A stretch of 64,000 bases of DNA from Chelativorans alearensis. Its GTDB lineage: Bacteria > Pseudomonadota > Alphaproteobacteria > Rhizobiales > Rhizobiaceae. The position numbers and the translations under genes were made by a program. The stretch's first letter is position 1; each line of letters opens with the position of its first letter. The stretch spans positions 62,001-126,000 of the forward strand of contig NZ_WQNI01000004.1 of NCBI RefSeq assembly GCF_010993735.1, read 5' to 3'. Positions 10,644 through 40,239 of the stretch are shown here, piece after piece. The notes below the pieces were generated by a model, which searched no databases, was not told the origin of the DNA, and was given only the letters and a program-made list of their open reading frames with translations.

Positions 10644-10954
10644 AACATTCCTCCTGGAATGAATCCAAGTGTTGGGATCGTGGCGTGAAAGAGCGCTTGG
10701 GGACACGCCGTACATCAGGCCAATCCCCTATCTGTACGGTCAATCCGCCGGCGCAAAGGGACTAAGCCTTCATCCGTTCGGGCTGGAATCGGCCTTATGC
10801 AGCGTTCCACCTGCGTCGAAGATGGCAGACGCTTAGCCGCCTATAGCCGAAAGGGACTAGGGCCAACGGTATTTACCTTGCCGGGATTCAATTGATGATC
10901 GGCAGGAAGGGGCGGGCTTTTCGCGCGTCCTTTCCACCGGGGTGCTTGGATCTT
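10644..10954. promoter_or_regulatory. Divergent intergenic region with 10-bp direct repeat
   Basis: This 311-bp gap lies between the divergent glycosyltransferase and export-protein genes and must hold both promoters. AAAGGGACTA occurs twice in the same orientation, at 10755-10764 and 10850-10859, 95 bp apart. No confident -35/-10 pair was identified. An in-frame extension of the + strand gene to 10892 is possible. Confidence 0.45.
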
Positions 10955-12298: not shown

Positions 12299-12323
12299 GG
12301 GCGAGGCGACCGAACATGGATGG

Positions 12324-16880: not shown

Positions 16881-17099
16881 GCTCTAAGACTTTTGGGCGA
16901 CATGAGAGCAAGATATTCAAGGTGAAGCCGTATGAGAGCGACGGGATATGAAATAGGGGAAGCAGGCTTAATCCAAGCCATCGAAATATCTGTATAAGTT
17001 ACACCAATAGAATTATATCTGATTGGTTAGCCACATTATAATCTGTTCCTGTAGCCGGCGATGAGGCCAGCTAAGTATATTAACACTTGGGGAATTTTT

Positions 17100-22362: not shown

Positions 22363-22618
22363 GCTAGCAAACAATCCGCGATGCCCGTACTCAGCCAAAT
22401 TGCCTATAATAAATGCCTTGCTAATGGATTTGGGTACTAGCGGATAACGCGCTCGGTAAGTTGAAAGATATCATAGGCTTATTTGAATAATTCGCGTCTG
22501 CGAAATAGTCTTGAAGAACTAAGGGCGGCTCGATGGCGTGGGAGTTCATCCTGCAGGCGATAGCGATATCGACAGGCGCGCCGCCGCAACGCCACCAGGC
22601 ATTTCGGGGAAGCAGGCG

Positions 22619-23797
22619 ATGGCAAGGGTCGGGTTGCGGGAATGGTTCGCGGTCGGGCGAGTCGTGATGTCGGGACGTCTCGCCCGCTATGGCGGTGGAG
22701 GCGAGGGGCCGTTGACGCGGTTCGAGGCAGATTATTCGGAGAAATTCGGGGTCAAGCATACGCTTGCGGTAAGCAGCGGAACGGGGGCGCTGATCTGCGC
22801 ACTTGCGGCGGCCGGCGTGGGGCCGGGCGACGAGGTGCTGGTGCCAGCCTATACCTGGATCGCAACCGCCGCAGCACCCCTTGCCGTCGGCGCCGTTCCC
22901 GTGCTTGTCGACATCGACCAGACGCTGACCATGGATCCGGCCGACATCCTGCGCAAGATCACGCCGCGTACGCGCGCCATCCTGCCGGTACATATGGCCA
23001 ACATGGTCTGCGACATGGACCGGATCATGGAGATTGCCCGCAAGCACGGGCTCCTCGTCATCGAGGATGCCTGCCAGGCGGTCGGTGTCACCTATAAGGG
23101 AAGACGGGTCGGCACGATCGGTGATATCGGCGCCTACAGCTTCAACCAGTTCAAGAACATCAACATCGGAGAGGGCGGGGCCGTTGTCACCAACAGCGAC
23201 CGCTATTTCGTACGTGCGCGGATGTATCACGACGTGGGTGCGGTCTTCCGCGGCCATCTCGACAACGACAACGAGCCACACTTCCTCGGCGTGAACCTGA
23301 AGGCGAGCCAGATCCAGGGCGCGATGCTCAATGTCCAGCTCGCCAAGCTCGATCCGATGATCCGCCGCATGCGTAAGCGCTATCGGATCATGTCGCGCAT
23401 CCTGGCTTCCTCGCCGGCATTCCGGATCGGCCCGCACAACGACGTGGAGAACGCGGCCGGCCTGCACCTGATCTTCGAGAGCGCCGAGGAAGCGGAGCGC
23501 TTCGCCGGGCGCAACCGGCGCGGGGTTTACAGGCTCTACGATTCAAGCCGTCATGTTTACACCAACTGGGTACCCGTTCTCGAACAGCGTGCCACCCATC
23601 CCAAGATGAACCCCTTCGCCTGGGCCTCGCCCAGGATCGAGTATACGCCGGAGATGTGCGCACGCACGCTCGACATCCTGCAGCGCACTTGCCGCATCAG
23701 CCTCGGCGAGAACTATCCCTCGCCCCTGGCGGCTTTCCTTGCGCGGCGCATGGCGAACGGGGCCGATCCGGCGAGGAGGCTCTCCTATGCGGTATAG
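22619..23797 (+). CDS. DegT/DnrJ/EryC1 PLP aminotransferase
   Basis: A 392-aa class V-like aminotransferase of the sugar-aminotransferase family. Features are VSSGTGALICALAAAGVGPGDEVLVPAYTW, the pyridine-binding IEDACQAVG and the PLP Lys in SFNQFKNINIGEGGAV (K179). Such enzymes make amino sugars on nucleotide carriers, or aminocyclitols. GGGGAAG lies 8 nt before the ATG at 22619, so I prefer it to a GTG at 22538 whose extra 27 residues are not conserved-looking. The gene is divergent from the GMC oxidoreductase and overlaps the phosphopantetheinyl transferase gene by 11 nt, tying amino-sugar chemistry to the NRPS system. Confidence 0.87.
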   Translation: MARVGLREWFAVGRVVMSGRLARYGGGGEGPLTRFEADYSEKFGVKHTLAVSSGTGALICALAAAGVGPGDEVLVPAYTWIATAAAPLAVGAVPVLVDIDQTLTMDPADILRKITPRTRAILPVHMANMVCDMDRIMEIARKHGLLVIEDACQAVGVTYKGRRVGTIGDIGAYSFNQFKNINIGEGGAVVTNSDRYFVRARMYHDVGAVFRGHLDNDNEPHFLGVNLKASQIQGAMLNVQLAKLDPMIRRMRKRYRIMSRILASSPAFRIGPHNDVENAAGLHLIFESAEEAERFAGRNRRGVYRLYDSSRHVYTNWVPVLEQRATHPKMNPFAWASPRIEYTPEMCARTLDILQRTCRISLGENYPSPLAAFLARRMANGADPARRLSYAV

Positions 23798-24593
23798 CTC
23801 CCCCACCATTGGCCCCGATGTCATCGACATCTGGCGCTGGTCGCTCGACGTCGGGATGGACGACCTGCCGCGCTATGTGACCGCGCTCAGCGAGGGGGAG
23901 TTCGCTCGCGCCTCGCGCTTCGTGCACGAGCGCGATCGTCTGCGCTTCATCGTCGGGCGAGGCAAGCTGCGCGAGATCATCGGCCGTTATCTGCGCGTGC
24001 CCGCCAGGCGCCTCTCCTTCGCTTGCAACGCGTTCGGGAAGCCGCGCCTGGCGGCATCGCGGCCGCCGCTGCATTTCAATCTCAGCCACACCGGCGGCAT
24101 GGCGGTCCTGGCAGTGTCGGACCGGTATCACGTCGGCATCGACATCGAGAAGATCGTGCCGCTCAAGGAGGACGTGGCGGGCCACTTCTTCTCGCCCAGC
24201 GAACGCCTGGCGCTGCGCAATGTGCCGCCGGGCGGCTATCTCGAAGCCTTCTACCGGTGCTGGACGCGCAAGGAGGCGTTCGTGAAGGCGCACGGGGCGG
24301 GGCTTTCCCTGCCACTCGAGGCCTTCGACGTGTCGATCGATTCCGTTGGCGAGCCGAGGCTGCTGCGGCTCGAGGGTGATCTTGAAGCGCCCGCGCAGTG
24401 GCGGCTTCTCAACCTGACCCTGCCGGCGGGCTTCGTGGGCGCCATAGCGGCCCTGACGGCCGACAACGATATTTCGCTGCGTTATCGGGCGGATGAAGCG
24501 GCAGAAGATGTGCAGGAGGAAATGCCGCTTGCAGCGCGTGTTCTGCGAGGTTCGCCCGACAATCAGCTGCTCAACCGCGCGTCGAGAATGTAG
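23787..24593 (+). CDS. 4'-phosphopantetheinyl transferase, Sfp type
   Basis: A 268-aa enzyme that moves phosphopantetheine from CoA to the carrier-domain Ser, needed for the ACP and PCP domains encoded next to it. The family motifs are present: LHFNLSHTGG, VGIDIEKI (D119, E121) and WTRKEAFVKAHG (W159, K162, E163). GAGGAGG precedes the ATG, which lies inside the end of the aminotransferase gene. The 3' end overlaps the convergent GINT1-like gene by 31 nt. Its dedicated position supports a functional assembly line. Confidence 0.93.
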   Translation: MRYSSPTIGPDVIDIWRWSLDVGMDDLPRYVTALSEGEFARASRFVHERDRLRFIVGRGKLREIIGRYLRVPARRLSFACNAFGKPRLAASRPPLHFNLSHTGGMAVLAVSDRYHVGIDIEKIVPLKEDVAGHFFSPSERLALRNVPPGGYLEAFYRCWTRKEAFVKAHGAGLSLPLEAFDVSIDSVGEPRLLRLEGDLEAPAQWRLLNLTLPAGFVGAIAALTADNDISLRYRADEAAEDVQEEMPLAARVLRGSPDNQLLNRASRM

Positions 24594-26212
24594 CGGCCGC
24601 CGGCGGCATCGAAATGGTGGCAGCCGGCGAGGCCGGGCTTGAAGTCCGGGATGATCGTCCTGATACATGTCTCGCGATAGGTCTCGCGGCTCAGCTCCTG
24701 GATCTCCATGATATTGAGGCCATAGCCATAAATGCCGTAGGCGTTGTTCTGCGACGGCCGGAACAGGCGGCCATGGCGGGTGAAGACCCTGCCGGCATTG
24801 CGCGCGACGGTGCTGCCGATGACCACGGGATTGCGCGCATGCGGGACGACGCGCGACAACGTGGGCCCGTCGACCTCGAATGCGTGAAGTTCGCCGCAAT
24901 GATCCTCGTATGCGTGGTGGTCGGACAGATTCGACAAGAGCCACCATGTGCCTTTGTGCCGGAAGAGAGTGCTGTCGGCGGCCGAGTAGCCCTCGAGCGC
25001 GGTTGCATAGAGTTCCCATTTCAAGGGGAAATCGGTGCAGCGCCAGATCTCGATGCGTTTTTCCTGATGCGTTTCCGGCATCATGAAAATGCCCTTGCCG
25101 TTACGGAATACGAAGGGGAAGGAGAGGTGGCTTGCACTCTCTATCGCCGGGCCGAGCGGCTCTATCCCATCGTTCGTGAGCCTGCCGACGGCGATATGGG
25201 CTTTGCGGTCGCCGACAGCATAATTCTCGTAGAAGACATAGACGTCTTCGCCATGTCTGAAGAGAAAGGGGTCGGCCTTGATCGAGTCTTTCGTGGGCGA
25301 AAGTTCGACGGCGAGATGCGGATCGAAATGCTCGACGGAGCCGGCGCCGCTATAGAGCGTCCAGACGGCTGTCTCCATGCCCGCTTTTCTTCGTAGCTCC
25401 TTCGCGGCACGTGCGGCCGCCGCGCGCGCCAACCCGAGGGCATAGCGCGCGACCTCTGCCGTGCCCGGCGGGCCGGCGGGCCGAGCCGAAGCCGTGTCGT
25501 GCCCAGATGTGAGGCTTCCGGTATCGGCCAGCCGCCGTAGCTCTCTCATGAGCAGGATCACGGCCTTTTCCTTCAGGAAAGCCGAATTTCTGGCGGCGCT
25601 GAACTTTGGGTTGAAGGCGGCCGAGGCGATCTCTTCAACGGGGCCTCCTCCGCCATGATTGACGTTGAGCCCTATTTGCACCGTTGGCGCACCGGCGCTG
25701 ACCTCGGCAAAGCTGCACCAGTCCGCGGTACGGGATTTAAGATCGGCGAACGTCAACGCCCATTCTCCGTATGGGAGCGTGGCGACGAAGGCGTCTGGGA
25801 GCCCTCGGGGGACCGTGCGGAGGACAAGATCGAGGCGCAGGTCTTCCAGGGCCGGCGATCCGATCGTGTGGCCCGAACCCGCTTCGCCGAGATGGATGAA
25901 CTCGGTCCGCTGGTGGATATCTTCGAAATAACTCGGGCGATAAGCAGGCTGGCGAGCGAACAGCAAGCGGTCGACCTTTGCGACGAGGTCGAAAAGGGGC
26001 GTCGAGCGGTGTTGGCCATAGCCGCCCGGATGTATCAACACGGCCTTGAGATCGAAGCGCGGGTCGGCAAACAGCCGGTCGAAAAGCTGCAGTTCCCAGT
26101 TCTCGAAGCCCTCTTCGCTACCGACAAGGATGCCGATGCGAAGGGGAGGCCGGTTGCTTTTGCCAGTCCACTCGAGGACCGGCTGTACATAGGCCTTGCC
26201 ATTGAAGCGCAA
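24563..26212 (-). CDS. Formyltransferase-like plus GINT1-type glycosyltransferase-like protein
   Basis: A 549-aa protein with two parts. Residues about 15-270 resemble the formyltransferase fold (LRIGILVGSEEGFENWELQLFDRL) but the expected His and Asp of the active site are not evident (YGEWALTFADLK where H and D would be). Residues about 285-549 match the domain of plant glucosamine inositolphosphorylceramide transferase GINT1 (KADPFLFRHGEDVYVFYE, IFMMPETHQEKRIEIWRC, GYSAADSTLFRHKGTWWLL). The start is a TTG at 26212, two nt past the TGA of the NRPS gene with GGGGGG upstream, so translation is coupled to the assembly line. Upstream frame to 26509 is a shadow. Confidence 0.78.
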   Translation of the reverse strand: MRFNGKAYVQPVLEWTGKSNRPPLRIGILVGSEEGFENWELQLFDRLFADPRFDLKAVLIHPGGYGQHRSTPLFDLVAKVDRLLFARQPAYRPSYFEDIHQRTEFIHLGEAGSGHTIGSPALEDLRLDLVLRTVPRGLPDAFVATLPYGEWALTFADLKSRTADWCSFAEVSAGAPTVQIGLNVNHGGGGPVEEIASAAFNPKFSAARNSAFLKEKAVILLMRELRRLADTGSLTSGHDTASARPAGPPGTAEVARYALGLARAAAARAAKELRRKAGMETAVWTLYSGAGSVEHFDPHLAVELSPTKDSIKADPFLFRHGEDVYVFYENYAVGDRKAHIAVGRLTNDGIEPLGPAIESASHLSFPFVFRNGKGIFMMPETHQEKRIEIWRCTDFPLKWELYATALEGYSAADSTLFRHKGTWWLLSNLSDHHAYEDHCGELHAFEVDGPTLSRVVPHARNPVVIGSTVARNAGRVFTRHGRLFRPSQNNAYGIYGYGLNIMEIQELSRETYRETCIRTIIPDFKPGLAGCHHFDAAGGRYILDARLSS

Positions 26213-26213
26213 G

Positions 26214-29033
26214 TCAGCCCCCCACGTTGAGCCGCTTCGACAGGATCGAAGACAGCTTGCTGATGCCGGTGCTGCTGAGCGAATCCTCGTGCCACCCATC
26301 GAGATCGAAAGCCGGCGTGTCGTCGCGGATGAAGCCGCGCCATCCGAACAGGAGCTTTTTGGCGCGTTTGTGGTTTGCCCGGCTGCGGAACAAAAGGACA
26401 TCTTCGCCGGTGATCGGCCGCGGCCGGTAGCTGCGGGCAGCCTCGACCAGCAACTCCGTGACGAGCTCGTTCTGCCGCTCCTCCTTGCTCGGCGCCCCTT
26501 TCGCACCAAGAAGCTTCAGCGTGACGTTGAACTCTTTCAGGTAGTCGATCAGCGCTATCCTGCCGCCGATGAGCTTGCCGGTGAAATAGAGGAGCCGCTT
26601 GGCGCGCTTTTCCATGGTCCAGCGTAACTGTCTCAAGCGGGGGAGCGAGCGGAAATAGCCGGGCGCCCAGCTATCGATGACGGCCACGAACTGGACGCGG
26701 TGGCCGAGGCGGCGCAGCTGCCTTGCCAACTCGATCGCCAGAATGCCGTTCACGCACAGCCCGACGACGGCGACCGGGCCTGAATCGGGACGAAGGTTCA
26801 TTGCGGCGATCGCATCGGCCACGATCTGCTCCATCGGGAACCCGCGAAGCGCGTCGTCGATCTCGGCTCCGAACATGTGGAGGTTCACCACCGCCGGTCC
26901 TTCGGCAAGCTCGTTGGCCATGCGGTAGTAGAGGAATGGGTGATTCAGCGTATAGAGGGTGCACGCGCCATTGCCTTCCCGGTAGAGCGACGTCTCCCAA
27001 TAGGCGGATCGCCGCATGATGGTAGCCGGCTCGGGGCTTGCGGGCGCGGGCAGCTCCTCGCCGAAGGCTTCGCGGGAGAAAGCAGTAAGGGTGGACGCCC
27101 TGAAGAGGAGGGCGAGATCCGGTGCGACGCCGAATGTCTCCCTCATCGTCGACAACATGCGCAGGGCGAGCAGGGAGTGGCCGCCGAGAGCGAAGAAATC
27201 GTCGGAGCCCACCACCTTCTCCACGCCGAGCACATCCGCCCATATCTCTGCGAGTTGGCGCTCCTTGCCGGTTGCGGGGCCGGTTACAGTGTCGGTCAGG
27301 GGGCGCCCGACTGCCGGCGTTGGCGTGGCGGCGGGACGCTCCTTCGCCTGCGAAGGCGAGGGGGCTTGCAGCGCTTGCCGGTCTATGCCACCTGCGGCCG
27401 TGCGCGGAAACGCCAGCAGAACGCTGATGCCATCCGGCATATCCCTGGCCTCGATACGGGTCGACAGATACTCCATCAGGTGCTCGGGAAGCGCTTCGAC
27501 GGGATGGGCAAGTGTCGGCGAAGGCACGACGAACCCGTAGGGGCGGCCGATTGCCGATGTGCCGGCACCGATTGCGACGGCCTCGGCAACGTCGGGGTGC
27601 TCCGTCAGGATTTTCTCTAGGTATGTGGGGCTGCCCGAAGCCGGCTCGTCGGGAACCCGCCGACGGATGGGTGCACTTGGCAAGTGAAGTGCGGTGTCCG
27701 GATCCGCCAGGGCTTGCTCGTAGGTATCCTGCCAGAGGCGCAGCAGCTCTTGCGCCGTGCCCGCGTCGAAGAGGTCGGTGTTGTACTCGACCGACATGCG
27801 CCAGCCGTTCGGTCGGCCGATCATGATGAAGTTCAGGTCGTAGATCACGCCAGGCGATTGCGAGGGGGCGCTGATAAGTTCGAACGCGCCGTAGCGCGCA
27901 TTCTCCAGGAACGCCTTTTGCTGGTTGAAATTGATCGAGATCAGCGGATTGCGCGATGGGTCCCGCACCGGGTTTATGAGTTCGACCAGATTGTTGAACG
28001 GCATCTTCTGGTGATTGAGGGCCGCAGTGACCGTCTCGCTTGCACGGCGGATATGCTCGGCAAAGGACAGGTCGTCCGCTACGTCGAAGCGCAGGACGAG
28101 GTTGTTGATGAAGACGCCGATGAGGTTTTCGAGGTCCACTTCGTCGCGCCCGGCGATCTGTGTTCCGAACAGGATCTGCCGCTCGCCGGTGAGCCGGCCC
28201 AATGCGGCACTGATCACAGCGGCGCCGTAGCTGAAGAGGGAGACCTGATGGGCGCGGGCGGCCTTGTCGATGCGCTCGCCGAATTCGAGCGGCATCGCCG
28301 CCGACAGGATCTCGCCGCGGCTGGTCTTTGTGTGCCCGCGTGGGCGGTCGGGAGGGACCTCGAAATAGGGAGCGTCCGCCAGTTGCTGGCGCCAGTATGT
28401 CTTCTCTGCTTCGAACCCATAGCTGCGGCGGTATTCATCCTGCCACAGGGCGAAGTCGCCATATTGCAGGGGTAGGTCTGGGAGATTGGGGCTCCGGTTG
28501 GCGTCGATCGCCGAGGCGATTTCCCCCACCTCGCGGCCGAGCACGCGGATCGACCAGCCATCGAAGCAGGTCTGGTGAGCGGTGATGAGGATGAAGCCGC
28601 GATCATTCTCCACCATCAGGAAGGTGACGCGGAAAAGCCCTGGCTCCCGCAGATCGAACGGTGCGCTCGCCGTCTCGCGGCTGATGGACTGGATGCGCTC
28701 GTCGCGCTGGTCCGCCGGCACATTCCTGAGATCGATCACCGACATCTTGAAATCGACCTTGTCGACCACCTGCTGAACCGGCTGGCCGGAGACGTCCAGA
28801 AAGCGGGTGCGCAGGATTTCGTGCCGGTCGATGATTTGCCGGAAGGCAGCCTCTATGCTGGCGATCTTGAAGGTGCCGCGGATTTCCCAGCGCACGGCGA
28901 CGTTGAGCGCGGGGTTGCCGGGGCTGAGTTGGTCGAGAAACCAGCAGCGCAGCTGCGTCTGCGTGCAGGGGAACTCGGCGACGACGGCATGACGCCTGTC
29001 GGAGAATGTCGCGGCGGGGTCCATTTTGTTCAT
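26214..29033 (-). CDS. NRPS: condensation*, adenylation remnant, PCP, thioesterase
   Basis: A 939-aa terminating protein. Residues about 18-450 form a condensation domain, but its HHxxxDG motif reads HQTCFDG (153-159), with Gln at the usual catalytic second His. Residues about 468-556 look only like the C-terminal subdomain of an adenylation domain (YLEKILTEHPDVAEAVAIG ... AGGIDRQAL), with the A10 Lys replaced by Gly and no ATP-binding subdomain. A PCP follows (LGGHSL, S620). The C-terminal thioesterase has GLCVNG with C760 where Ser is usual, D787 and H915 (GWHED). It overlaps the upstream synthetase by 4 nt. Confidence 0.9.
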   Translation of the reverse strand: MNKMDPAATFSDRRHAVVAEFPCTQTQLRCWFLDQLSPGNPALNVAVRWEIRGTFKIASIEAAFRQIIDRHEILRTRFLDVSGQPVQQVVDKVDFKMSVIDLRNVPADQRDERIQSISRETASAPFDLREPGLFRVTFLMVENDRGFILITAHQTCFDGWSIRVLGREVGEIASAIDANRSPNLPDLPLQYGDFALWQDEYRRSYGFEAEKTYWRQQLADAPYFEVPPDRPRGHTKTSRGEILSAAMPLEFGERIDKAARAHQVSLFSYGAAVISAALGRLTGERQILFGTQIAGRDEVDLENLIGVFINNLVLRFDVADDLSFAEHIRRASETVTAALNHQKMPFNNLVELINPVRDPSRNPLISINFNQQKAFLENARYGAFELISAPSQSPGVIYDLNFIMIGRPNGWRMSVEYNTDLFDAGTAQELLRLWQDTYEQALADPDTALHLPSAPIRRRVPDEPASGSPTYLEKILTEHPDVAEAVAIGAGTSAIGRPYGFVVPSPTLAHPVEALPEHLMEYLSTRIEARDMPDGISVLLAFPRTAAGGIDRQALQAPSPSQAKERPAATPTPAVGRPLTDTVTGPATGKERQLAEIWADVLGVEKVVGSDDFFALGGHSLLALRMLSTMRETFGVAPDLALLFRASTLTAFSREAFGEELPAPASPEPATIMRRSAYWETSLYREGNGACTLYTLNHPFLYYRMANELAEGPAVVNLHMFGAEIDDALRGFPMEQIVADAIAAMNLRPDSGPVAVVGLCVNGILAIELARQLRRLGHRVQFVAVIDSWAPGYFRSLPRLRQLRWTMEKRAKRLLYFTGKLIGGRIALIDYLKEFNVTLKLLGAKGAPSKEERQNELVTELLVEAARSYRPRPITGEDVLLFRSRANHKRAKKLLFGWRGFIRDDTPAFDLDGWHEDSLSSTGISKLSSILSKRLNVGG

Positions 29034-32000: not shown

Positions 32001-35000
32001 TTGGGGATGATCTCCAACCGGTCGCCCGCGCGCGAGAAACGGATGTGAAGGGCATCGTGACGTTCGATAACCAAGTCGAGTGCGCGGCGCAAAGCTTCTT
32101 TGTTCAGAATGCCTTCAAGGGTGAGATTGAAGGATTCATTGAAGGAGCAGGAAGCTTCGTCGCCCGCCTGGGCGGCGAGCCAGATTTCCTTCTGCGCTTC
32201 AGTGAGTTCGGCCGATGTCACGGCCTCTCCAGCCGTCGGCACGGGGGCCGCGGCCAGCGTTTTACCCTCGGAAGGCGCCAGGACGCCGGCGGCCTGGAGA
32301 GCATCGAGGCTGTTGCGGAAGACGTCGGATATGCGCTGGAAATCCTCCTCCGTATGGACGGTGGTGAGGAAACAGGGATAGCCGTCCTGCACATGGATGC
32401 CCTGCATGCGCGCGTGCGGGTAAAACAGCGCGCCGAGAGGATCGAGGCTGCCAAAGTCCGTCACGAACCAACTTGCATAGCCGTTGACCGTGCCGGCGAT
32501 GCCGCGGCGGGCGAGGTCGGCATTCAGCTCTTCCACGAGCAATTGCGTGCGGTCGGCGACCCGGCCGTAAAGTGCCTGGCCTTCGCCCTTGATGTGCTGC
32601 AGAACCGCCTTGGCCGCCGCCAGCGTGACCGGGTGGCGCACGAAGGTGCCGGCGAAGAAGGTGGGCGCCACCATCGGAACGGAGTCGTCCCCATAGGTCC
32701 AGTGGCCGCCGTCTAGGGCATCCATGAATCGGCTGTCACCGGCGAGAACACCGATGGGCATGCCGCCGCCCAGCACCTTTCCGTAGGTCGCCATGTCGCC
32801 CCGGATGCCCCAGACGGCCTGCATGCCGCCCGGATGGACGCGGAAGCCGGTGACGACTTCGTCGAACACCAGCGCGAATTCGCCTTCGGTGGCGATCCGC
32901 CGCAGTTCCCGTACGAACTCGACTGGGCGCAGCTCCGGATGGCGGCTTTGCACGGGCTCGATGATGACGGCTGCGATGTCTTCGGCGTTGGCGCGGATCC
33001 AGTCGAGGCTTTCGGGCGCGCCGTAGGTGAGGACCGTCATGTTGGAAAGCGAGGTCGGCGGAATGCCGGCGGCGATCGGCAGCGCTGTGGGCGCGCCTGA
33101 GCGGCTGCGGCCCTTCACCAGAACTTCGTCGAACTGACCGTGGTAGTCGTTGCCGAAGACGACCACCTTTTCCCGGCCCGTGACGGTTCTGGCGACCCGC
33201 ATGGCAGCCATCACGGCCTCCGAGCCGGTGTTGCAGAAGGTCACGCGCTCGTGGCCGGTCATCTCGCCGATAAGTTCGGCCACTTCTCCTGCAAGCGGCG
33301 TCTGCGGACCGATCGCAAAGCCGCTGTCTACCTGGTCGATCATCGCCTTGACGACGAAATCGGGCGCATGGCCGAAGGCCGTCTGGCCCATGCCGTTGAC
33401 GAGGTCGATATATTCGTTGCCGTCGATGTCCCAGATGCGCGAGCCCTTGGAGCGGTCTGAGACGACAGGGAAGACGATCTCCTTCCACTCCGCACGGAAG
33501 CCGGAGGCCGCGCGCGGATCCGCCAGGCGGCGGCGGTTGGCCTCGGTGAAGGCCTTGGACCTGGCATTTCTTGCGGCGTAGCGTTCCGCCAGTTCGGCGA
33601 TGAATGCGCGCTTTTGCGGTGTCAGCTCGCCGTCGCTGAGGCGCATGCCGGGCTTATAAAGGCGCGGCCGCCCGGAGCCGGTCTCCGCTTCTTCGGGCTT
33701 GGCCGCCTCGGTCGCGGGAGGATTGGCGGAGATGGTCGATTGTGGGCTCGTCTGCTGCGGTGCCGGGGGCGGTACCGTAGCACCCAGCGTCTGGGCCGCC
33801 TGCAATTGCTGGGCAAAAAGCTGCTGCATCATCTGAAGCTGCGACTGGAACAGCCCTTCCAAACCGGCGGCAGCCGGTGCGGAAGGCGTTGCCGTGGGCA
33901 CCATTGGCGCCTGGATCGCAGGAACAGGGGGCTGCGCCGCCGGGGCGGCGGCAGGCTGCAGCGCGTCGGGCGGGATCTCGGCGTCGAGATGCCGCGCAAG
34001 GGCGCCGACGGTCGGGATGCTGCTCAGAAGCTCGCGGAAGGAGAGCTTTACCTTGTACTGCTTCTCGATCTTTTGCGCGAACTGGCCAATGAAGAGGGAA
34101 TCGAAGCCGAGTTCCAGGAAGGTCGCGCCGGCGGCATCGGAGGCCAGCTCCTCGCCCGACATCTCGGCTAGAAGGCATAGCAATGCCGCTTCCAGCCTCT
34201 CGATCCTGTTTTCGGAGGGAATTTGCGTGACAACATTCATGGTATCGGTTCCGTGTGCGGGTGCCGGTCGCGGCGCGTTGGCCTGCGGTGCGGTGGCCTC
34301 TGCCGCGATGGAGACTTGCCGGTTTGGCCGTGGCGCCTCAATCCAGTGCTTCTGGCGCTGAAAGGCGTAGGTCGGCAGGGGAAGGCGCCGCTGGGCAGAC
34401 GTCGGCAGTTGCGGCCAGTCAAGGTCGCAGCCGGAGATCCACAGCCGCGCATGCGCCTCGGCGAAGGTGGCGGGGGCGGCGGACGCCCGGTCATGCTCGG
34501 GCAGTGACTGGACGATCGCCGCCAGATCGCCGCGATTGATGGTCTGCGCGGCGAAGACGGACAGCGTTCGACCGGGGCCGACCTCCAGCAGGACCGGCCT
34601 TCTGTCACGGCAGACGGTGGCGAGGCCGTCGGCGAAGCGGACGGCGTCGCGGCAGTGTTGCGCCCAATAGTCGGGCGAGGTGCCGAGGGCATCGGTCTGC
34701 CAGTCGCCGGTCGTGCAGGAAACGTAGGGAATTGTAGCCGTGCCGTAGGCGAGCTTGCCCGTCTCCTTGCGCAGTGCTGCCGCCGCCTTGTCCATCATGG
34801 CCGAATGGAAGGCGTGCGAGGTGTGCAGGCGGCTGAAGGCGATGTCGGCCTCCTGCAGCCGCGCGCAGGCGGCGTCTATAGCCTCGAACGTGCCTGAGAT
34901 AACGCAGAGCTTGGGCGCGTTGACCGCGGCGATCTCCACGCCCTCGTCAAGGTGAACACGCACCGTCTCGGCCTCGGCGCGGATGGAGACCATCGCGCCT

Positions 35001-37021
35001 TGCGGCTGTTTCTGCATCAGACGGCCTCGATTGGCCACCAGAAGCAGCCCGTCGTCGAAGGACATGACATTGGCGAGTGTGGCGGCGACGAACTCGCCGA
35101 CGCTGTGGCCGATCATCGCGGCGGGCACGAGCCCGCGGCTCATCCATAGGCGCGCCGTGGCGTATTCAATGAGATAGAGCCCGGGCTGGGCGATCTTCGT
35201 GTCGCGCAGGGCAGCCGACATCTCGTCGGTGGGATCGCCCGCGTGGCAGATGAATTTGCGCAGGTCGATGCCGGTTCGCGCTTCCAGAAGGCCGGTGCCA
35301 TGATCGATCCAGCGGGCGAATTCGGGCTCGCTGTCGTAGAGGGCGCCGCCCATGCCGACATATTGGGCGCCCTGGCCGGGAAACATGAAGATGACTGGCG
35401 GAGAGGTTTCCTCCGCTGTGCCGGCAAGCGGACGTTCGTTCTCGAGGCCGGCGGCGGCTTCTTCCACGTTTGTGGCGATTACCGCCGTGCGGTGCGCAAA
35501 ATGGTGCCGGCCGTTCTGAAGCGTGTAGGCGGCGGCAGGAAGCGGGATACCTGGATTGCGGCGGAGCGCATCGGCCAGGTTGCGGCGCATGACTGCGAGC
35601 GATGCTTCATTGCGCGCCGACAAAGGTATGATGTAATTTGCTTTTCCGTCTTCTTCTCCAGGTGAAGGAGCGGGCGGCGCCTCTTCCAGGACGAGGTGCA
35701 CATTCGTGCCGCCTACGCCGAAGGAACTGACGCCCGCCCGCCGCCGCGGGCCGTCTGCCGGCCACTCACAGAGCGCCCGCGGAATGTAGAAAGGGCTGTC
35801 GTCGAGATCGATGTGCGGATTGGGCGTGGAGAAATTCGCCATGGGCGGGATCTTGGCGCGGCGCAGCACCAGAGCTGCCTTGATGAGCCCCGCCACGCCG
35901 GCGGCCGCGTCCAGATGGCCGAAATTGCCCTTTACCGAGCCGAGTGCGCAGGACGATCTGGTGGAGACGTCGCCGAAGGCCTTCCTCAGGCCGGCGAACT
36001 CGATCGGGTCGCCCAGCGGCGTGGCGGTGCCGTGGCATTCGACATAGCCGATGGTGGAAGGCTCGATGCCGGCGTTGGCATATGCCGCGGTGATGGCTTC
36101 GGCTTGGCCCGTCACGCTCGGCGCGGTGTAGCCGACCTTGTCGGATCCGTCGTTGTTGACGCCGTAGCCGAGGATGACCGCGTGGATGTGGTCACCGTCG
36201 CGCAGCGCGTCGTCGAGGCGCTTCAGGAGCACAACGCCGGCACCGCTGCCGAAGACCGTGCCGGCCGCATCGGCATCGAAGGGACGGCAGAAGCCATCCG
36301 GGGAGGCCATGCCGCCTTCCTGATAGATGTAGCCGCGCTTCTGGGGAAAGGTGATCGACACACCGCCGGCCAGCGCCATGTCGCAGCTATAGGTCAGGAG
36401 GTTCTGGCAGGCCTGCGCGACCGCCAGGAGTGACGTCGAGCAGGCGGACTGGATGGTGAAGGCGGGGCCGCGCAGATTGAGCTTGTAGGCGACGCGTGTG
36501 GCAAGCGTGTCGTTGATCGAGCCGATCAGCTCGGAGAACATGCCGATCTGGTAGTTCGAGGTGAAGGCCTCGGCTTTTTCGCGGTCCGACAGCACATTGT
36601 TGATGAGGTAGGTGGCAAGCGCGGAACCGGCGAAGACACCCACCTGTCCAGGGCACGCATGGGGGTCGTAGCCGGCGCCTTCGATGGCCTCCCAGCAGAT
36701 CTCCATGAAGATGCGAAACTGCGGGTCGATGAGGGCGGCCTCGCGCGGATACATGCCGAAGAACTCGGCGTCGAACAGCTCTACATCGTCGAGATGGGGT
36801 CTCGCCGGTACGTAATCCTTGGCAGCGCGAACGTCGTCGCCGAAGGCGTCCTCGATCTCTTCTGGCGAGAAATGCGCGAATGCATGTCTGCCCTGGGCGA
36901 TAAGCTCCCAAAGTGCATCGACGGAGGGGGCGCCGGGAAAGCGGCCGGACATGCCGATGATCGCCACGCTGCCTATGCCTTCACCAGCAAGGGCTTCCAC
37001 CTGAGGTGATGTTTCGTTCAT
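29030..37021 (-). CDS. Hybrid PKS-NRPS: KS-AT-ACP-aminotransferase-C-A-PCP
   Basis: A 2663-aa cytoplasmic megasynthase. KS 15-450 has C194, H330 and H369. AT 543-840 has Ser640 in GHSVGE and HAFH (736-739), pointing to malonyl-CoA. The ACP Ser is S975. A Pro/Ala/Gln-rich linker runs 1016-1120. A class III aminotransferase (1160-1585) has PLP Lys K1415 in TYGKVLGGG. The C domain (1600-2030) has an intact HHIVCDG. The A domain (2050-2550) has TSGSTGTPKG and NGKLDRKAL; the binding-pocket residues read D-I-L-Q-M-C-M-I-W-K, close to the glycine-type code DILQLGLIWK. The PCP Ser is S2595. No KR, DH, ER or methyltransferase domain. The layout recalls the aminotransferase module of iturin/mycosubtilin synthetases. 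Confidence 0.95.
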   Translation of the reverse strand: MNETSPQVEALAGEGIGSVAIIGMSGRFPGAPSVDALWELIAQGRHAFAHFSPEEIEDAFGDDVRAAKDYVPARPHLDDVELFDAEFFGMYPREAALIDPQFRIFMEICWEAIEGAGYDPHACPGQVGVFAGSALATYLINNVLSDREKAEAFTSNYQIGMFSELIGSINDTLATRVAYKLNLRGPAFTIQSACSTSLLAVAQACQNLLTYSCDMALAGGVSITFPQKRGYIYQEGGMASPDGFCRPFDADAAGTVFGSGAGVVLLKRLDDALRDGDHIHAVILGYGVNNDGSDKVGYTAPSVTGQAEAITAAYANAGIEPSTIGYVECHGTATPLGDPIEFAGLRKAFGDVSTRSSCALGSVKGNFGHLDAAAGVAGLIKAALVLRRAKIPPMANFSTPNPHIDLDDSPFYIPRALCEWPADGPRRRAGVSSFGVGGTNVHLVLEEAPPAPSPGEEDGKANYIIPLSARNEASLAVMRRNLADALRRNPGIPLPAAAYTLQNGRHHFAHRTAVIATNVEEAAAGLENERPLAGTAEETSPPVIFMFPGQGAQYVGMGGALYDSEPEFARWIDHGTGLLEARTGIDLRKFICHAGDPTDEMSAALRDTKIAQPGLYLIEYATARLWMSRGLVPAAMIGHSVGEFVAATLANVMSFDDGLLLVANRGRLMQKQPQGAMVSIRAEAETVRVHLDEGVEIAAVNAPKLCVISGTFEAIDAACARLQEADIAFSRLHTSHAFHSAMMDKAAAALRKETGKLAYGTATIPYVSCTTGDWQTDALGTSPDYWAQHCRDAVRFADGLATVCRDRRPVLLEVGPGRTLSVFAAQTINRGDLAAIVQSLPEHDRASAAPATFAEAHARLWISGCDLDWPQLPTSAQRRLPLPTYAFQRQKHWIEAPRPNRQVSIAAEATAPQANAPRPAPAHGTDTMNVVTQIPSENRIERLEAALLCLLAEMSGEELASDAAGATFLELGFDSLFIGQFAQKIEKQYKVKLSFRELLSSIPTVGALARHLDAEIPPDALQPAAAPAAQPPVPAIQAPMVPTATPSAPAAAGLEGLFQSQLQMMQQLFAQQLQAAQTLGATVPPPAPQQTSPQSTISANPPATEAAKPEEAETGSGRPRLYKPGMRLSDGELTPQKRAFIAELAERYAARNARSKAFTEANRRRLADPRAASGFRAEWKEIVFPVVSDRSKGSRIWDIDGNEYIDLVNGMGQTAFGHAPDFVVKAMIDQVDSGFAIGPQTPLAGEVAELIGEMTGHERVTFCNTGSEAVMAAMRVARTVTGREKVVVFGNDYHGQFDEVLVKGRSRSGAPTALPIAAGIPPTSLSNMTVLTYGAPESLDWIRANAEDIAAVIIEPVQSRHPELRPVEFVRELRRIATEGEFALVFDEVVTGFRVHPGGMQAVWGIRGDMATYGKVLGGGMPIGVLAGDSRFMDALDGGHWTYGDDSVPMVAPTFFAGTFVRHPVTLAAAKAVLQHIKGEGQALYGRVADRTQLLVEELNADLARRGIAGTVNGYASWFVTDFGSLDPLGALFYPHARMQGIHVQDGYPCFLTTVHTEEDFQRISDVFRNSLDALQAAGVLAPSEGKTLAAAPVPTAGEAVTSAELTEAQKEIWLAAQAGDEASCSFNESFNLTLEGILNKEALRRALDLVIERHDALHIRFSRAGDRLEIIPNFRISMEFKDYAGDPDPEAELEEIVAEEAYTPFDLVTGPLARTRLVRLAADRHVLVFTAHHIVCDGWSTNVIVEELAAAYSAFVSNREPNLPPALSFAAHAGNLAKAETNAATEDFWLKQFETVPELAELPTDRPRPERRTFAGGTCTAHIEKETYKRLKKAGAKSGATMFSTLLAALQVMIARLSGSTDIVIAVPSAGQSLLGDQTLVGHCVNLLPLRQEVDAGVPFEKHLRATQQGVLQAFEHQDYTYGTMVRKLGLKRDPSRLPLTEIQFNLERTARNAGFEGLSAQIAPNPKAFSNFDMFLNMIESEDGIRIDVDYNGDVFDRATIERWLEHFNTLVSAIADDIGRKVVDLPLLSDDQENWLVNEINQTAAEYERDRFVFELFARKAGEHPDAIAAEHGGASITYGALEARSNQLARHIQARLFIPGQRVALALDRSIEMLIALLAIMKAGHAYVPLDPDHPEARLRQTMEAADISALVCGSDAIAKLATKNTCVIRMDTEQAKIEAQDAAPLELQVADAGSAAYIIFTSGSTGTPKGVEVSHRSLVNFLTSMAREPGFTPQDALLAVTTISFDIAGLELYLPLIVGGKVVIADRAQVQDGFALVELLKTCGATVLQATPTLWQMLVEAGLSDRPRLKMLCGGEPLPKELARALLKIGGELWNMYGPTETTIWSSLARVEDDDNPIHIGHPIANTQLYILDGHDRIAPVGVVGELCIGGDGLANGYFNRLDLTEAAFRPVRIGGKLPRGLYKTGDVGRRLPDGTLQLLGRRDNQIKLRGFRIELGDIEAVIDRKDGIRQCAVVAAQNRNGDRQLVCHFVPADGSEPSAEELASHAKAHLPGHMVPSFWVATSELPRTANGKLDRKALERLGVPQRETAPIRTKPRTPMEERLSHIWKEVLEIGEIGVDENLYALGADSLSIFRIAARMMDDGLPLEAKHLLRHPTISELASYAEEQDEAPINGTAPHIPSLREFRNGARRGMERPS

Positions 37022-38958
37022 GAGGCGCTCCGGCGGAATTGGGACATCATCCTTTTTCTCAAGTCCGCCCGCGCTTGGACGGAGGTGGCGGACGCCGCAC
37101 CTGGCCCGCCATTACCGAGATGATGTGCCAGGCTTCGGATGTTGGGATGCTGGAAGACTGCCACGACGTCGATCGAACGTTTGAGGGCTTCCTCCAGCGC
37201 GGCGTGTACGCGGATGAGCTGCATGGAGGTGCCGCCGAGATCGAAGAAGTTCTGGTCCATGCCTATGTCGGCCCTGCCGAGCACCTCTTGCCAGAGCTTC
37301 GTCAGCAGCGCTGCGGTGTCTCCGGTAGGTGGCGGTGCTGCCGGCGCAGCTGCTTCCAGCCGGGGAAGGGGAAGCTGCGAGCGGTCGATCTTGCCGGCCT
37401 GGTTCATGGGGAACCGGTCGAGCACGACCGCATGACTCGGGATCATGTGCGCAGGCAGCACCATCTTCAGCGAAGAGAGAACCGCTGTTGCGAAGTCGGT
37501 TTCACTCATCGCTATCGGAGGCTGGGGCCGCAGATAGGCGACGATCCGTTTGGCGCCGGTGCTGCCCTCATGGCAGACCGCCACGGCATCGGCGAGGCGT
37601 GCGTCCCGGCGCAGCGCCGCCTCAATCTCGTCGAGCTCTATACGCTTTCCGTCAATTTTGATCTGCCGGTCCAGGCGTCCCCTGAAGTGCAGGATCCCTT
37701 CGCTGTCCATCATGGCGAGATCGCCGGTGAGGTAGCAGCGCAAAGAGGTTCCGTCGGCTGTATGGATGGTGACGAAGCGCTCGCGCGTGAGGTCGGGCCG
37801 GTTGAGATAGCCGATCGCCAGACCGTCGCCCGACACCGCCAGCTGCCCCTCCGAACCCGGCGGCAGCTCGCGGAGATGCTCGTCGAGGATGTGGATACGG
37901 CTGTGAGCGATGCTACGCCCGATGGGAATTTCATCGCCTTTGAAATCCGACGGTATGGTGTAGGCCGAGGCCATGACGGTCACTTCCGTAGGGCCGTAGG
38001 CGTTTGTGAGGATGCAATCGGGGTTGTTTCGCAGGAACCGCTTAGCGTGGTCGGCCGAGGCAACCTCGCCGCCGAACAGCACATGCCTCAATGAGGCAAG
38101 CCGGCTACCCCAATGATCGACCAGCAAGTGGAAAAGGCCCGTCGTCAGCAGCATGACGGTGACACGATTGTCGTCGATGGCCTGGGCAATGCGCGGCAGC
38201 GACAGCGTGCGGTCGCCTATTCCCAGCAGTGTGCAGCCGTTGAGCAGTGCGCCCCAGATCTCGAAGGTCGCCGCGTCGAAGGAGATCGTGGCCGTGTGCA
38301 GGACGACGTCGTCGGGCCCGAAACGAATGTAGTTCTGGTCACGTACGAGGCGGGCAATGCCACGATGGGGGATGACGACACCTTTGGGCCGGCCGGTCGA
38401 GCCGGAGGTGTACATGACATAGGCGGCATCGCCGCCTGAGACATCGGGCAAATCCTGAGGCGGGCCTTCTTCTGCGCTTTCCAGAAGGCGGTCGAGGTCT
38501 GCTACAGCGCCGGCGGTCGGAATCGCGCGGATCGCCGCGGCGCTCTCCTTATCGACCAGGATAAGCTTGGGATCGCAGTCGCCGATCATATAGCCGAGAT
38601 GCTCGGCGGGATAGGACGGGTCGAAGGGAGCGTAGGCCGCTCCCGATTTGAGGATCGCCAGCTTGGCGACTATCGTGTTCAGCGCACGTGGCAGAAAGAG
38701 GCCGACGACGTCGCCCTTCGCCACCCCAAGCCGCATCAGTTCGCCGGCGAGCGCGGAGGACCGACGGTCGAGCTCGGCGTAGGTGAGGCGGGTGCTGCCG
38801 AATTGGACGGCTATTGCATACGGCCGCAGCGAAGCCTGCTCGCTCACGAGATCATGAATGCTGCGCCAGCGCTCGTAGCTGTTTCGCGCCTGAAAAACGG
38901 GGCGCGCCGCCGTCGCGCGTCCATTAAGAAATTCCACCCGCCCTTCATTGCTGTTCAT
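37018..38958 (-). CDS. NRPS loading protein: adenylation-PCP
   Basis: A 646-aa starter module. The adenylation domain (about 35-530) has TSGSTGRPKG (184-193), YGPTE, the TGD motif and AGKIDRSQL (K523). The pocket residues read D-A-F-L-V-F-A-V-M-K; the leading Asp (D228) fits an alpha-amino acid and the rest is hydrophobic, but I cannot name the substrate. The PCP has LGGTS with S578. With no condensation domain it most likely loads the first residue, which the KS of the next protein extends. It is the first gene of the operon and overlaps the next by ATGA. AAGGTG lies about 10 nt before its ATG. Confidence 0.93.
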   Translation of the reverse strand: MNSNEGRVEFLNGRATAARPVFQARNSYERWRSIHDLVSEQASLRPYAIAVQFGSTRLTYAELDRRSSALAGELMRLGVAKGDVVGLFLPRALNTIVAKLAILKSGAAYAPFDPSYPAEHLGYMIGDCDPKLILVDKESAAAIRAIPTAGAVADLDRLLESAEEGPPQDLPDVSGGDAAYVMYTSGSTGRPKGVVIPHRGIARLVRDQNYIRFGPDDVVLHTATISFDAATFEIWGALLNGCTLLGIGDRTLSLPRIAQAIDDNRVTVMLLTTGLFHLLVDHWGSRLASLRHVLFGGEVASADHAKRFLRNNPDCILTNAYGPTEVTVMASAYTIPSDFKGDEIPIGRSIAHSRIHILDEHLRELPPGSEGQLAVSGDGLAIGYLNRPDLTRERFVTIHTADGTSLRCYLTGDLAMMDSEGILHFRGRLDRQIKIDGKRIELDEIEAALRRDARLADAVAVCHEGSTGAKRIVAYLRPQPPIAMSETDFATAVLSSLKMVLPAHMIPSHAVVLDRFPMNQAGKIDRSQLPLPRLEAAAPAAPPPTGDTAALLTKLWQEVLGRADIGMDQNFFDLGGTSMQLIRVHAALEEALKRSIDVVAVFQHPNIRSLAHHLGNGGPGAASATSVQARADLRKRMMSQFRRSAS

Positions 38959-39239: not shown

Positions 39240-40079
39240 TCAGTCGGCGCGATAGGCGCGTACATAGTCCACATCCATGTGGGATGGGTCGAGGGTATCG
39301 TTTTTCGTCGGTCCGTCGACCAGTGCGAGGTTGACCAGGATGTAGAGCGGCTGCCGGTGCTCTTCCTGGGTCTCTGTCTTCCACACGAGCTCGCGGTCGA
39401 AATAGAAGCGGATCCAGTCACGGTCGATCTTGACGCCGTAGGTATGGAAGTCGCCGGGGTCGGCATCGCCAAAAACCTCGTTGCGCATGTAGCGCGAATA
39501 GTGCCGGCCGTCGCGATGCCACACATGGACGACGGATGAGTAGCCGTCCGGCTTGTCGCCGTAGAATTCGATTACGTCTATTTCGGCGGTGAAGCGGGAC
39601 CGGTCCTTACCGATCAGCCAGAAGGCGGGCCACACGCCCGGACCCACCGGCAGGCGGGCGCGCATTTCGAAATAGCCGTATTGCTGCGCAAAGCCGTTTC
39701 CCTTCGGGTCGACGGATGCCAGCAGTCCGGAACGCCATTCGCCCTCGGCGTCCCTTTTCGCCTCGATGCGCAGGATGCCGTCGTCAACGGTGAAGGGGCG
39801 TTCCTCGGGGTCGGCGAAACGGGCACCGCCGAAGTCTCCGGACCAGGGCGTGTGCGCGATCCAACGCGTGCCTGGCCCCCAAGCGGAGACGCTGAGGGTA
39901 TCGAACTCCTCCTCAAAGGAGACGCTCATCTCCTCCAGATCGAGCCTGTCCTCCGCCGAGCCGGCGATGCCGGGAGAGGCAATCATTGCCGCAAGGGCAG
40001 CCGCGGCAAGGAGCACCCTACCTCCGCCACCATATCGAACGTTGCGTGTCTTGAGGGGGATTTGTTCCGGAGAATTCAT
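39240..40079 (-). CDS. Glycoside hydrolase family 16 (ExoK/ExsH-like beta-glucanase)
   Basis: A 279-aa exported endoglycanase. A signal peptide (VLLAAAALAAMIASPGIAGSA) precedes the GH16 domain, which has the catalytic motif EIDVIE (E-x-D-x-x-E) and typical neighbours YGYFEMRARLPVGPGVWPAFWL and DFHTYGVKID. Rhizobial enzymes of this family cut nascent exopolysaccharide into shorter chains. AGGAGGT lies 7 nt before the ATG at 40079, which fixes the start; an 82-codon upstream extension is not real. It is divergent from the polymerase gene and ends just before the PKS-NRPS promoter region. Confidence 0.9.
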   Translation of the reverse strand: MNSPEQIPLKTRNVRYGGGGRVLLAAAALAAMIASPGIAGSAEDRLDLEEMSVSFEEEFDTLSVSAWGPGTRWIAHTPWSGDFGGARFADPEERPFTVDDGILRIEAKRDAEGEWRSGLLASVDPKGNGFAQQYGYFEMRARLPVGPGVWPAFWLIGKDRSRFTAEIDVIEFYGDKPDGYSSVVHVWHRDGRHYSRYMRNEVFGDADPGDFHTYGVKIDRDWIRFYFDRELVWKTETQEEHRQPLYILVNLALVDGPTKNDTLDPSHMDVDYVRAYRAD

Positions 40080-40239
40080 ATGACTACCTCCTGGCCCAGC
40101 ATACTTCATGGGCGAAGGCCGCAACCAGACGGGCGAACGGTGCGCGCCATACATCATAAGCAGTACCGGGGGTGGAACGACGGCGTGGGGGAACGGTGAT
40201 AATTTATGCCGCTTCCGGATAAGGGGCGGGGAACGCCGC

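What the first reader, a model, noticed from the sequence alone, without database searches (positions are those of the whole stretch)
23787..38958. A PKS-NRPS assembly line embedded in an exopolysaccharide locus
Three synthetase proteins with a dedicated phosphopantetheinyl transferase sit between exopolysaccharide assembly genes: ExoF/ExoP/ExoY/Wzx-like on the left, GH16, Wzy and pyruvyl transferase on the right. A DegT aminotransferase and GMC oxidoreductase are directly linked. The domain and gene content is seen in the sequence. That a peptide-polyketide is attached to a sugar of the polymer, or is made in step with it, is inference; it would be an unusual kind of surface glycoconjugate.
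Basis: partly seen in the sequence, partly recalled or inferred. Interest (0 to 1): 0.85.

Follow-up and report, generated by a model that had tools for sequence, protein, structure and literature searches.

The report
Peptide-polyketide factory inside exopolysaccharide locus
A three-protein peptide-polyketide assembly line sits inside a bacterial exopolysaccharide gene cluster and stays with it across two bacterial orders, which suggests that these bacteria decorate their extracellular sugar polymer with a custom-made aminoacyl group; that chemistry has not been tested.

Summary
The window (genus Chelativorans) holds A-T, KS-AT-ACP-aminotransferase-C-A-T and C-T-TE synthetases plus a PPTase, inside a Wzy-dependent exopolysaccharide (EPS) locus. 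The linkage is not chance: 10 of 297 sampled family genomes carry the terminal synthetase, all 10 with EPS genes beside it; 66 of 70 named loci have at least one EPS gene within about 25 kb, the other 4 lying on short or cut contigs; 0 of 10 chosen unrelated NRPS/PKS loci do.
Conserved oddities: the last module lacks its adenylation core in 80 of 80 homologues, its condensation motif is HQxxxDG in 75 of 80, its thioesterase nucleophile is Cys in 79 of 80 aligned rows. The second adenylation code is nearly fixed (glycine-type, recalled); the first varies (32 codes in 77).
Most likely it makes a short 3,4-diamino-acyl-glycine group placed on a repeat-unit sugar before Wzx export; attachment is inferred, not shown. 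GMC/DegT were not found near 10 of 10 Rhodobacterales-type loci, so that pair is no universal acceptor route. Three genomes have a related EPS locus without the line but with an AMP-ligase-like protein between ExoF and Wzy. Ten paper searches listed no description.

The parts
9513..10715 (-). GT4 glycosyltransferase at the left edge, conserved in the locus incl. Rhodobacterales
   Evidence: Pfam Glycos_transf_1; about 50-97% in syntenic loci
10892..12298 (+). ExoF-like export protein (Poly_export + SLBB)
12300..14693 (+). ExoP/Wzc-like chain-length and tyrosine-kinase protein (start approximate; ORF opens at 12096)
   Evidence: Wzz, GNVR, TIGR01005 (below its cut-off)
14680..15585 (+). GT2 glycosyltransferase
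   Evidence: (weak Pfam), conserved
15590..16880 (+). GT4 glycosyltransferase (start approximate; ORF opens at 15240)
17061..17777 (+). ExoY/WbaP-like initiating sugar-phosphate transferase
   Evidence: PF02397 4.3e-60; NCBIfam, below cut-offs
18153..19745 (+). Wzx-type flippase
   Evidence: Polysacc_synt_3 7.9e-33
19845..20663 (+). TIGR04325 family methyltransferase
   Evidence: 4.5e-54, above the curated cut-off
20650..22398 (-). GMC oxidoreductase (glucose dehydrogenase / 7dve / pyranose oxidase-like)
22538..23797 (+). DegT/DnrJ/EryC1/StrS sugar aminotransferase
   Evidence: 5e-79; nearest solved: 8-amino-Kdo transaminase 5k8b
23787..24593 (+). Sfp/HetI-type phosphopantetheinyl transferase
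   Evidence: ACPS 9.7e-19; HetI model 1.4e-43, below its cut-off
24563..26218 (-). Protein with formyltransferase-fold N-domain lacking a conserved His, plus five-bladed GH130/GH43-like propeller (PF24793); start approximate
26214..29033 (-). Synthetase 3: C (HQxxxDG), remnant AMP-binding_C, T, TE with Cys nucleophile; no adenylation core
29030..37021 (-). Synthetase 2: KS-AT(malonyl motif HAFH)-ACP-class III aminotransferase-C-A(Gly-type code)-T
37018..38958 (-). Synthetase 1: loading A(Leu-like code)-T
39240..40325 (-). GH16 family glycosidase (ExoK-like, recalled)
   Evidence: 1.6e-15
40108..41700 (+). Wzy-type polymerase
   Evidence: weak Wzy_C; close homologue 5-12 kb from the synthetase in 9 of 10 carriers
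41697..42962 (+). Polysaccharide pyruvyl transferase
   Evidence: 1.2e-24; CsaB model, below its cut-off
43173..43901 (+). Crp/Fnr regulator, conserved in most loci
44232..44993 (+). LuxR-type regulator, conserved in Rhizobiaceae-type loci

Best explanation
The block is an integral part of a Wzy-dependent EPS pathway and makes the acyl group of a polymer decoration. Synthetase 1 loads an amino acid (Leu-like in this window, variable elsewhere). Synthetase 2 adds a malonyl C2 unit, and its built-in aminotransferase turns the 3-keto group into an amine, giving a 3,4-diamino acid of the aminostatine kind. Its second module adds glycine. Synthetase 3 has no adenylation core, an altered condensation motif and a Cys thioesterase, and works as a transfer terminus: it passes the chain to a nucleophile on a nucleotide sugar or on the undecaprenyl-linked repeat unit. 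In the Rhizobiaceae type that nucleophile is plausibly an amine made by the GMC/DegT pair. The decorated unit is then flipped by Wzx, polymerised by Wzy and exported through ExoP/ExoF. Shown here: gene content, domain order, conservation and linkage. Inferred: substrates, product, transfer to sugar and order of steps.
For: Same gene set and order in same-genus genomes, Sinorhizobium/Ensifer and Rhizobium, and a reduced set in Rhodobacterales. In 297 family genomes the terminal synthetase (E <= 1e-120) occurs in 10, all with ExoP, ExoY, Wzx, Wzy and GT matches in the region. In 16 genomes of the genus a close Wzx (E <= 1e-180) occurs in exactly the 6 with the full-length PKS-NRPS. Control: 0 of 10 chosen unrelated NRPS/PKS loci. 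No transporter other than Wzx and the EPS export genes is annotated within the block (window genes). Distances of synthetase and EPS proteins track each other over 33 loci (PKS-NRPS with Wzx r 0.99, ExoY 0.98, GT4 0.95, methyltransferase 0.92; C-T-TE with these 0.80-0.90). In the three g80 genomes an EPS locus of the same kind has an AMP-ligase-like protein between ExoF and Wzy instead (3 of 3); in the one looked at closely, G241, it stands with an AsnB-type amidotransferase and an NAD-synthase-like protein, as if one acyl source replaced another. Catalytic residues of KS (C, H, H) are kept in 77 of 77 rows that reach them, AT Ser in 77 of 77, ACP Ser and aminotransferase Lys in 78 of 78, the first C domain's second His in 79 of 79. 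Cys at the TE nucleophile in 79 of 80 aligned rows.
Against: No chemical data. No gene is a proven transferase from a carrier protein to a sugar. GMC/DegT were not found near 10 of 10 Rhodobacterales-type loci, and GMC was not detected in R. jaguaris. The g80 genomes show that such an EPS locus can do without the line. High distance correlation would also follow from vertical inheritance alone; no housekeeping gene was compared. How T3 is loaded without an A domain is unexplained. The two characterised Cys TEs described in the passages read make beta-lactone or beta-lactam rings (PMC11298585, PMC6668435), so ring formation and release of a free product is possible.
Confidence: 0.5

Rival explanations
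1. The synthetases make a free, secreted small molecule (signal, chelator or antibiotic) whose genes are kept beside the EPS genes because both are co-regulated in biofilm or on plant surfaces.
For: Complete line with its own PPTase and TE; sporadic distribution (10 of 297) and plasmid location in Rhizobium, Sinorhizobium and Rhodobacterales records like ordinary secondary-metabolite clusters; Crp and LuxR regulators belong to most Rhizobiaceae-type loci seen at full length; Cys TEs known from ring-forming release.
Against: No own exporter, uptake or resistance gene annotated in the block (3, 4, 15); linkage to flippase/polymerase/GT genes survives at about 30-60% protein identity in Rhodobacterales-type loci; 0 of 10 control NRPS/PKS loci behave so.
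Confidence: 0.22
2. The product is not a repeated decoration but a primer, anchor or terminal cap of the polymer, in the way the PKS/FAS-like RkpA is thought (recalled) to serve K-antigen assembly in Sinorhizobium.
For: Precedent of a gene recalled as PKS/FAS-type that is required for a surface polysaccharide (an S. fredii rkpA mutant makes no KPS: table passage in PMC4270759).
Against: Short, polar predicted product (two amines plus glycine) is not a lipid (inference); an initiating sugar transferase is present.
Confidence: 0.12
3. The amines of the diamino-acyl group cross-link or charge the polymer, and GH16/propeller proteins remodel it, so the block serves mainly matrix mechanics.
For: Two predicted amines in a polymer that a pyruvyl transferase probably makes acidic.
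Against: This is a refinement of the main reading, with no direct evidence.
Confidence: 0.08
4. Chance neighbours: a mobile secondary-metabolite island inserted in an EPS island.
For: Sporadic, often plasmid-borne distribution.
Against: Kept across genera and two orders, even where the order has changed: in 13 Rhizobiaceae-type loci Wzx lies on the other side of the block at 17-25 kb.
Confidence: 0.03

Closest known systems
Succinoglycan-type Wzy-dependent EPS loci of rhizobia (exoF, exoP, exoY, exoT/Q, exoK, exoV; recalled)
   Same: ExoF, ExoP, ExoY-like initiator, Wzx, Wzy, GH16 and pyruvyl transferase are all present
   Different: Known substituents there are acetyl, succinyl and pyruvyl (recalled); here a PKS-NRPS line, PPTase, GMC and DegT are built in
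Mycosubtilin/iturin synthetase MycA (recalled)
   Same: KS-AT-ACP-aminotransferase-C-A-PCP order, beta-amino acid formed on the line
   Different: Here an amino acid, not a fatty acid, is the predicted starter; the product is much shorter; terminal module lacks an A core; EPS context
Dlt system (D-alanylation of teichoic acids; recalled)
   Same: An NRPS-like A domain and carrier protein supply an aminoacyl group to a surface polymer
   Different: Single residue; needs MBOAT DltB, and no MBOAT match was found in this genome
Exosortase A (XrtA) EPS loci with AMP-ligase, amidotransferase and carrier protein (recalled)
   Same: Carrier-bound acyl chemistry beside EPS genes; the g80 relative G241 has AMP-ligase and AsnB
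   Different: No exosortase match in this genome; full PKS-NRPS here
RkpA of Sinorhizobium K-antigen
   Same: Gene needed for a rhizobial surface polysaccharide (rkpA mutant makes no KPS: passage in PMC4270759); its PKS/FAS nature is recalled
   Different: No A, C or aminotransferase domains recalled for RkpA; different locus
AB3403 (4zxh) and ObiF1/SulM Cys thioesterases
   Same: TE nucleophile Cys; AB3403 is the best solved relative of this TE (1.3e-4), and the Asp aligned with it (IDSWAPG) fits the triad position described for AB3403 (passage)
   Different: ObiF/SulM form beta-lactone/beta-lactam with Asp at the other position (passages); very low sequence similarity

Membership tests
Wzy-dependent EPS pathway | Initiating polyprenyl-phosphate sugar transferase, Wzx flippase, Wzy polymerase, Wzz/Wzc and export protein in one locus | tested here: met
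   the Wzy assignment rests on a weak Pfam match plus synteny
Hybrid PKS-NRPS | KS, AT, carrier, C, A, TE domains with intact motifs | tested here: met
   the terminal module departs: no A core, HQxxxDG
MycA-type line with integrated beta-aminotransferase | Class III aminotransferase between the PKS ACP and an NRPS module | tested here: met
   (Aminotran_3 3.6e-49, residues 1184-1543); PLP lysine kept in 78 of 78 rows that reach it
Canonical NRPS termination module C-A-T-TE | A domain and HHxxxDG catalytic His | tested here: not met
   C-to-T distance 94-206 aa in 80 of 80 rows against 605 in the complete module; HQ in 75 of 80
Dlt system | MBOAT acyltransferase DltB | tested here: not met
   PF03062: 0 matches in own genome (99.87% complete); control rang in 3 of 14 known genomes
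XrtA/exosortase EPS locus | Exosortase EpsH | tested here: not met
   PF09721: 0 matches in own genome; the control rang only in Methanocaldococcus jannaschii
Sugar N-formyltransferase (for the 24563-26218 protein) | Formyltransferase fold with conserved N-x-H catalytic motif (motif recalled) | tested here: not met
Sugar aminotransferase (DegT) acting on a nucleotide sugar | Fold family and activity on a keto sugar | tested here: inconclusive
   Family met; below every listed NCBIfam cut-off; substrate untested
EPS-decorating peptide-polyketide pathway (the claim itself) | Acyl group covalently on the polymer | not testable with these tools
   Needs NMR/MS

The most novel reading that the evidence does not exclude
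A class of surface polymer in which each (or many) EPS repeat unit carries a peptide-polyketide group built by a modular assembly line, with a fixed C2-amine-glycine backbone and a first residue that varies between species. The A-less C-T-Cys-TE terminus would be a carrier-to-sugar transferase that joins NRPS/PKS and Wzx/Wzy biosynthesis.
Probability: 0.42. Interest if true: 0.88.

Novelty: new variant of a known kind. Interest (0 to 1): 0.72.

Why it matters
If the decoration is real, natural-product assembly lines can serve as polymer-modifying enzymes, and the species-specific first residue could tune recognition, charge or adhesion of EPS on plant roots, in biofilms and in the sea. Carriers include Rhizobium tropici strains, R. 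freirei PRF 81, S. americanum and S. fredii NXT3, so mutants and polymer analysis should be feasible. It would also give a release mechanism (A-less module with a Cys thioesterase) that could be tested for attaching acyl groups to sugars.

Tried and rejected
Rejected or corrected: (1) Minus-strand ORFs at 19824-20612, 22421-23467 and 23697-25019 as genes: no family match; plus-strand genes replace them. (2) The idea that the first A domain is exchanged by recombination: its pocket region is more variable (mean column identity 0.63-0.65 against 0.78 for the A2 pocket region), but its distances follow the rest of the locus (r 0.98 with the PKS-NRPS over 33 loci), so variation but not swapping is supported. 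(3) GMC/DegT as the universal source of the acceptor amine: not found near 10 of 10 Rhodobacterales-type loci (this label covers two loci, Consotaella L093 and Acuticoccus L113, that by my recall are not Rhodobacterales). (4) The 24563-26218 protein as a sugar formyltransferase: fold yes, no conserved His. It also occurs (42-43%) in the g80 loci that lack the synthetases, so it belongs to the EPS side. VIA rows for the whole model covered mainly residues 294-549, so the N-domain was folded alone. (5) Exosortase and Dlt readings.

Rows dropped or limited: of 78 loci, L108-L112 and L114-L116 (8) are generic NRPS and were left out of the 70. In the A1 code count 3 of 80 rows (L058, L067, L094) were dropped because the hit was not A1; AT1 presence counts can include cross-hits to A2. 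The 80 rows are not independent (some species occur twice). Of 19 loci without a core EPS gene in the fetched flank, 15 were followed further: 13 have a Wzx match on the same contig (contig lengths agree) at 17-25 kb, only Wzx being sought there; L054 has Wzy/pyruvyl transferase/GH16, and L091 has Wzy/ExoY/ExoP/ExoF/GTs. The remaining four (L055, L058, L067, L088) lie on short contigs or at contig ends; L055 and L088 show only GH16. L058 is the one row of 80 whose aligned TE lacks the Cys motif; the motif stands there in another reading frame than the T domain. The ten controls were picked by me from the stronger unrelated hits, not at random; G023 is a 27-kb contig and G026 was fetched on one side only. 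The A codes were read by motif position, and their meaning (Leu-like, Gly) is recalled; no specificity predictor was available. Ten literature searches listed no paper that I recognised as describing a PKS-NRPS line in an EPS locus; only an open-licence library was searched and only listings and passages were seen, so absence from print is not shown. PMC3557214 (R. tropici/PRF 81 genomes) has no occurrence of NRPS, nonribosomal or polyketide in its main text; PMC6256449 (a strain that carries the block, H11) names NRPS and PKS clusters and EPS biosynthesis apart (passages). Passages of PMC11340318 and PMC7902896 gave nothing on the question.

Full report
What is there. The window lies in a genome of the genus Chelativorans: its nearest named relatives are C. 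xinjiangense, C. salis and C. multitrophicus. Between an EPS assembly set on the left (GT4, ExoF, ExoP, GT2, GT4, ExoY-like, Wzx, TIGR04325 methyltransferase) and GH16, Wzy-like and pyruvyl transferase on the right lie GMC, DegT, a PPTase, a formyltransferase-fold/propeller protein and three synthetases. The synthetase ORFs are head to tail and overlap by four bases each (38958 down to 26214), so one operon is likely. Domain order is A-T / KS-AT-ACP-aminotransferase-C-A-T / C-T-TE.

Anatomy of the line. In 80 homologous rows (70 named loci plus ten others), KS Cys and both His are kept in 77 of 77 rows that reach them, AT Ser in 77 of 77, the HAF of the HAFH motif (malonyl type, recalled), ACP Ser and aminotransferase Lys in 78 of 78, and the second His and the Asp of the first condensation domain in 79 of 79; its first His is Tyr in one row. 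The A2 specificity code is DILQLGMIWK in 72 and a near variant in 6 of 80, the other two being incomplete; I read it as glycine (recalled). The A1 code is DAFLLGAVMK in the window, close to a Leu code (recalled). Over 77 rows A1 shows 32 different codes (three non-A1 rows dropped). Mean column identity in 64 Rhizobiaceae-type rows is 0.78 for KS, 0.81 for the aminotransferase and 0.78 for the A2 pocket region, but 0.63-0.65 for the A1 pocket region. So a fixed backbone carries a variable first residue.

The terminal protein is odd in a conserved way. The adenylation core is gone in 80 of 80 rows: 94-206 residues lie between C and T where the complete module has 605. In 39 rows the gap is 183-206 residues, as in the window, which keeps a small C-terminal A subdomain; in 41 it is 119 or less, which suggests that this too is lost. 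The condensation motif is HQxxxDG in 75 of 80, with HH in L092, L093, L100, Loktanella and Rhodobacter CZR27. The TE nucleophile is Cys in 79 of 80 aligned rows; in the other, L058, the same motif lies in another frame. Passages of two papers call a Cys nucleophile less common and tie it to ring-forming ObiF and SulM. The nearest solved TE by sequence is AB3403, which the SulM paper calls uncharacterised and Cys-containing (passage).

Linkage. Synteny of the set holds in same-genus genomes, Sinorhizobium/Ensifer and Rhizobium at about 41-98% protein identity. In Rhodobacterales (Rhodobacter CZR27, Loktanella, Jannaschia) the synthetases, PPTase and polysaccharide genes stay together, while DegT, GMC, the propeller protein and GH16 were not found. 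In an even sample of 297 family genomes the terminal synthetase (E <= 1e-120) occurs in 10. All 10 have ExoP, ExoY, Wzx, Wzy and GT matches in the region. A close Wzy (E <= 1e-100) occurs in 12 of 297: 9 of those 10 carriers, at 5-12 kb, and three genomes of one other genus; 34 of 297 match at 1e-40. Within 16 genomes of the genus the close Wzx is found in exactly the six with the full line; one other, G004, has a weak match, and the window's own genome has a second copy. Of 70 named loci, 51 show at least two core EPS genes within the fetched flank. Fifteen more were shown to have EPS genes further out, 13 of them by Wzx alone, and four are on short or cut contigs. As a control, ten chosen unrelated NRPS/PKS loci from 8 related genomes, most with about 20 kb on each side, show none of the EPS genes. 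One further genome, G017, has a divergent line (A-T; KS-AT-ACP-C-A-T-TE, no aminotransferase, no A-less module) near ExoY, ExoF and a GT, so the association is older or broader than this exact architecture.

Lineages with the EPS locus but without the line. The three g80 genomes have GT2, ExoP, ExoF, Wzy, Wzx, the propeller protein, ExoY and GTs, with an AMP-ligase-like match between ExoF and Wzy in 3 of 3. In the one looked at gene by gene (G241) this ligase stands with an AsnB-type amidotransferase, an NAD-synthase-like protein and a glycosidase. This fits a locus in which the source of an acyl or amide group can be exchanged, and it shows that such EPS genes do not need the line to persist.

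Reading. The simplest account of a partnership this strict, with no exporter of its own in the block, is that the product leaves the cell through the EPS route, that is, bound to the repeat unit. The free-molecule rival remains open, as do anchor or cap roles. Distance matrices agree (PKS-NRPS with four EPS proteins r 0.92-0.99, C-T-TE 0.80-0.90), but vertical inheritance alone would also give this.

Novelty. The parts are of known kinds; the fixed combination, and the conserved A-less C-T-Cys-TE terminus beside a Wzx/Wzy system, I did not find in ten searches of an open-licence library. I rate it a new variant of a known kind, with a categorically new polymer class as the bold reading.

Noticed in passing
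window 48009-52175 +: A 1388-residue protein with a cytochrome P450 domain and a C-terminal Dyp-type peroxidase match (just under the TIGR01413 cut-off); near full-length relatives on plasmids of Pararhizobium, Novosphingobium and Sulfitobacter (9 records cover 80% or more). Function of the fusion unknown.
   Followed up: partly
window 46188-47927 +: Adenylate/guanylate cyclase domain fused to a long TPR region next to LuxR regulators.
   Followed up: no
G241 (L140, L141), G094 (L142, L143), G294 (L144, L145): Related EPS loci without the PKS-NRPS; an AMP-ligase-like match between ExoF and Wzy in all three, with an AsnB-type amidotransferase and NAD-synthase-like protein in G241.
   Followed up: partly
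G017 (L034-L036): Divergent, shorter assembly line without aminotransferase or A-less module, near ExoY/ExoF.
   Followed up: partly
G000:C20:24945-26357 (L151): A second Wzx homologue (50% identical to the window's) on another, 32-kb contig where none of the other locus proteins matched.
   Followed up: partly
L015 and L016, beside the PPTase: A CocE/NonD-family hydrolase neighbours the PPTase in Rhodobacter CZR27 and Loktanella; it could be an alternative release or transfer enzyme.
   Followed up: no
L015, 351-10346: In Rhodobacter CZR27 the loading A-T and the PKS-NRPS are fused into one protein.
   Followed up: no
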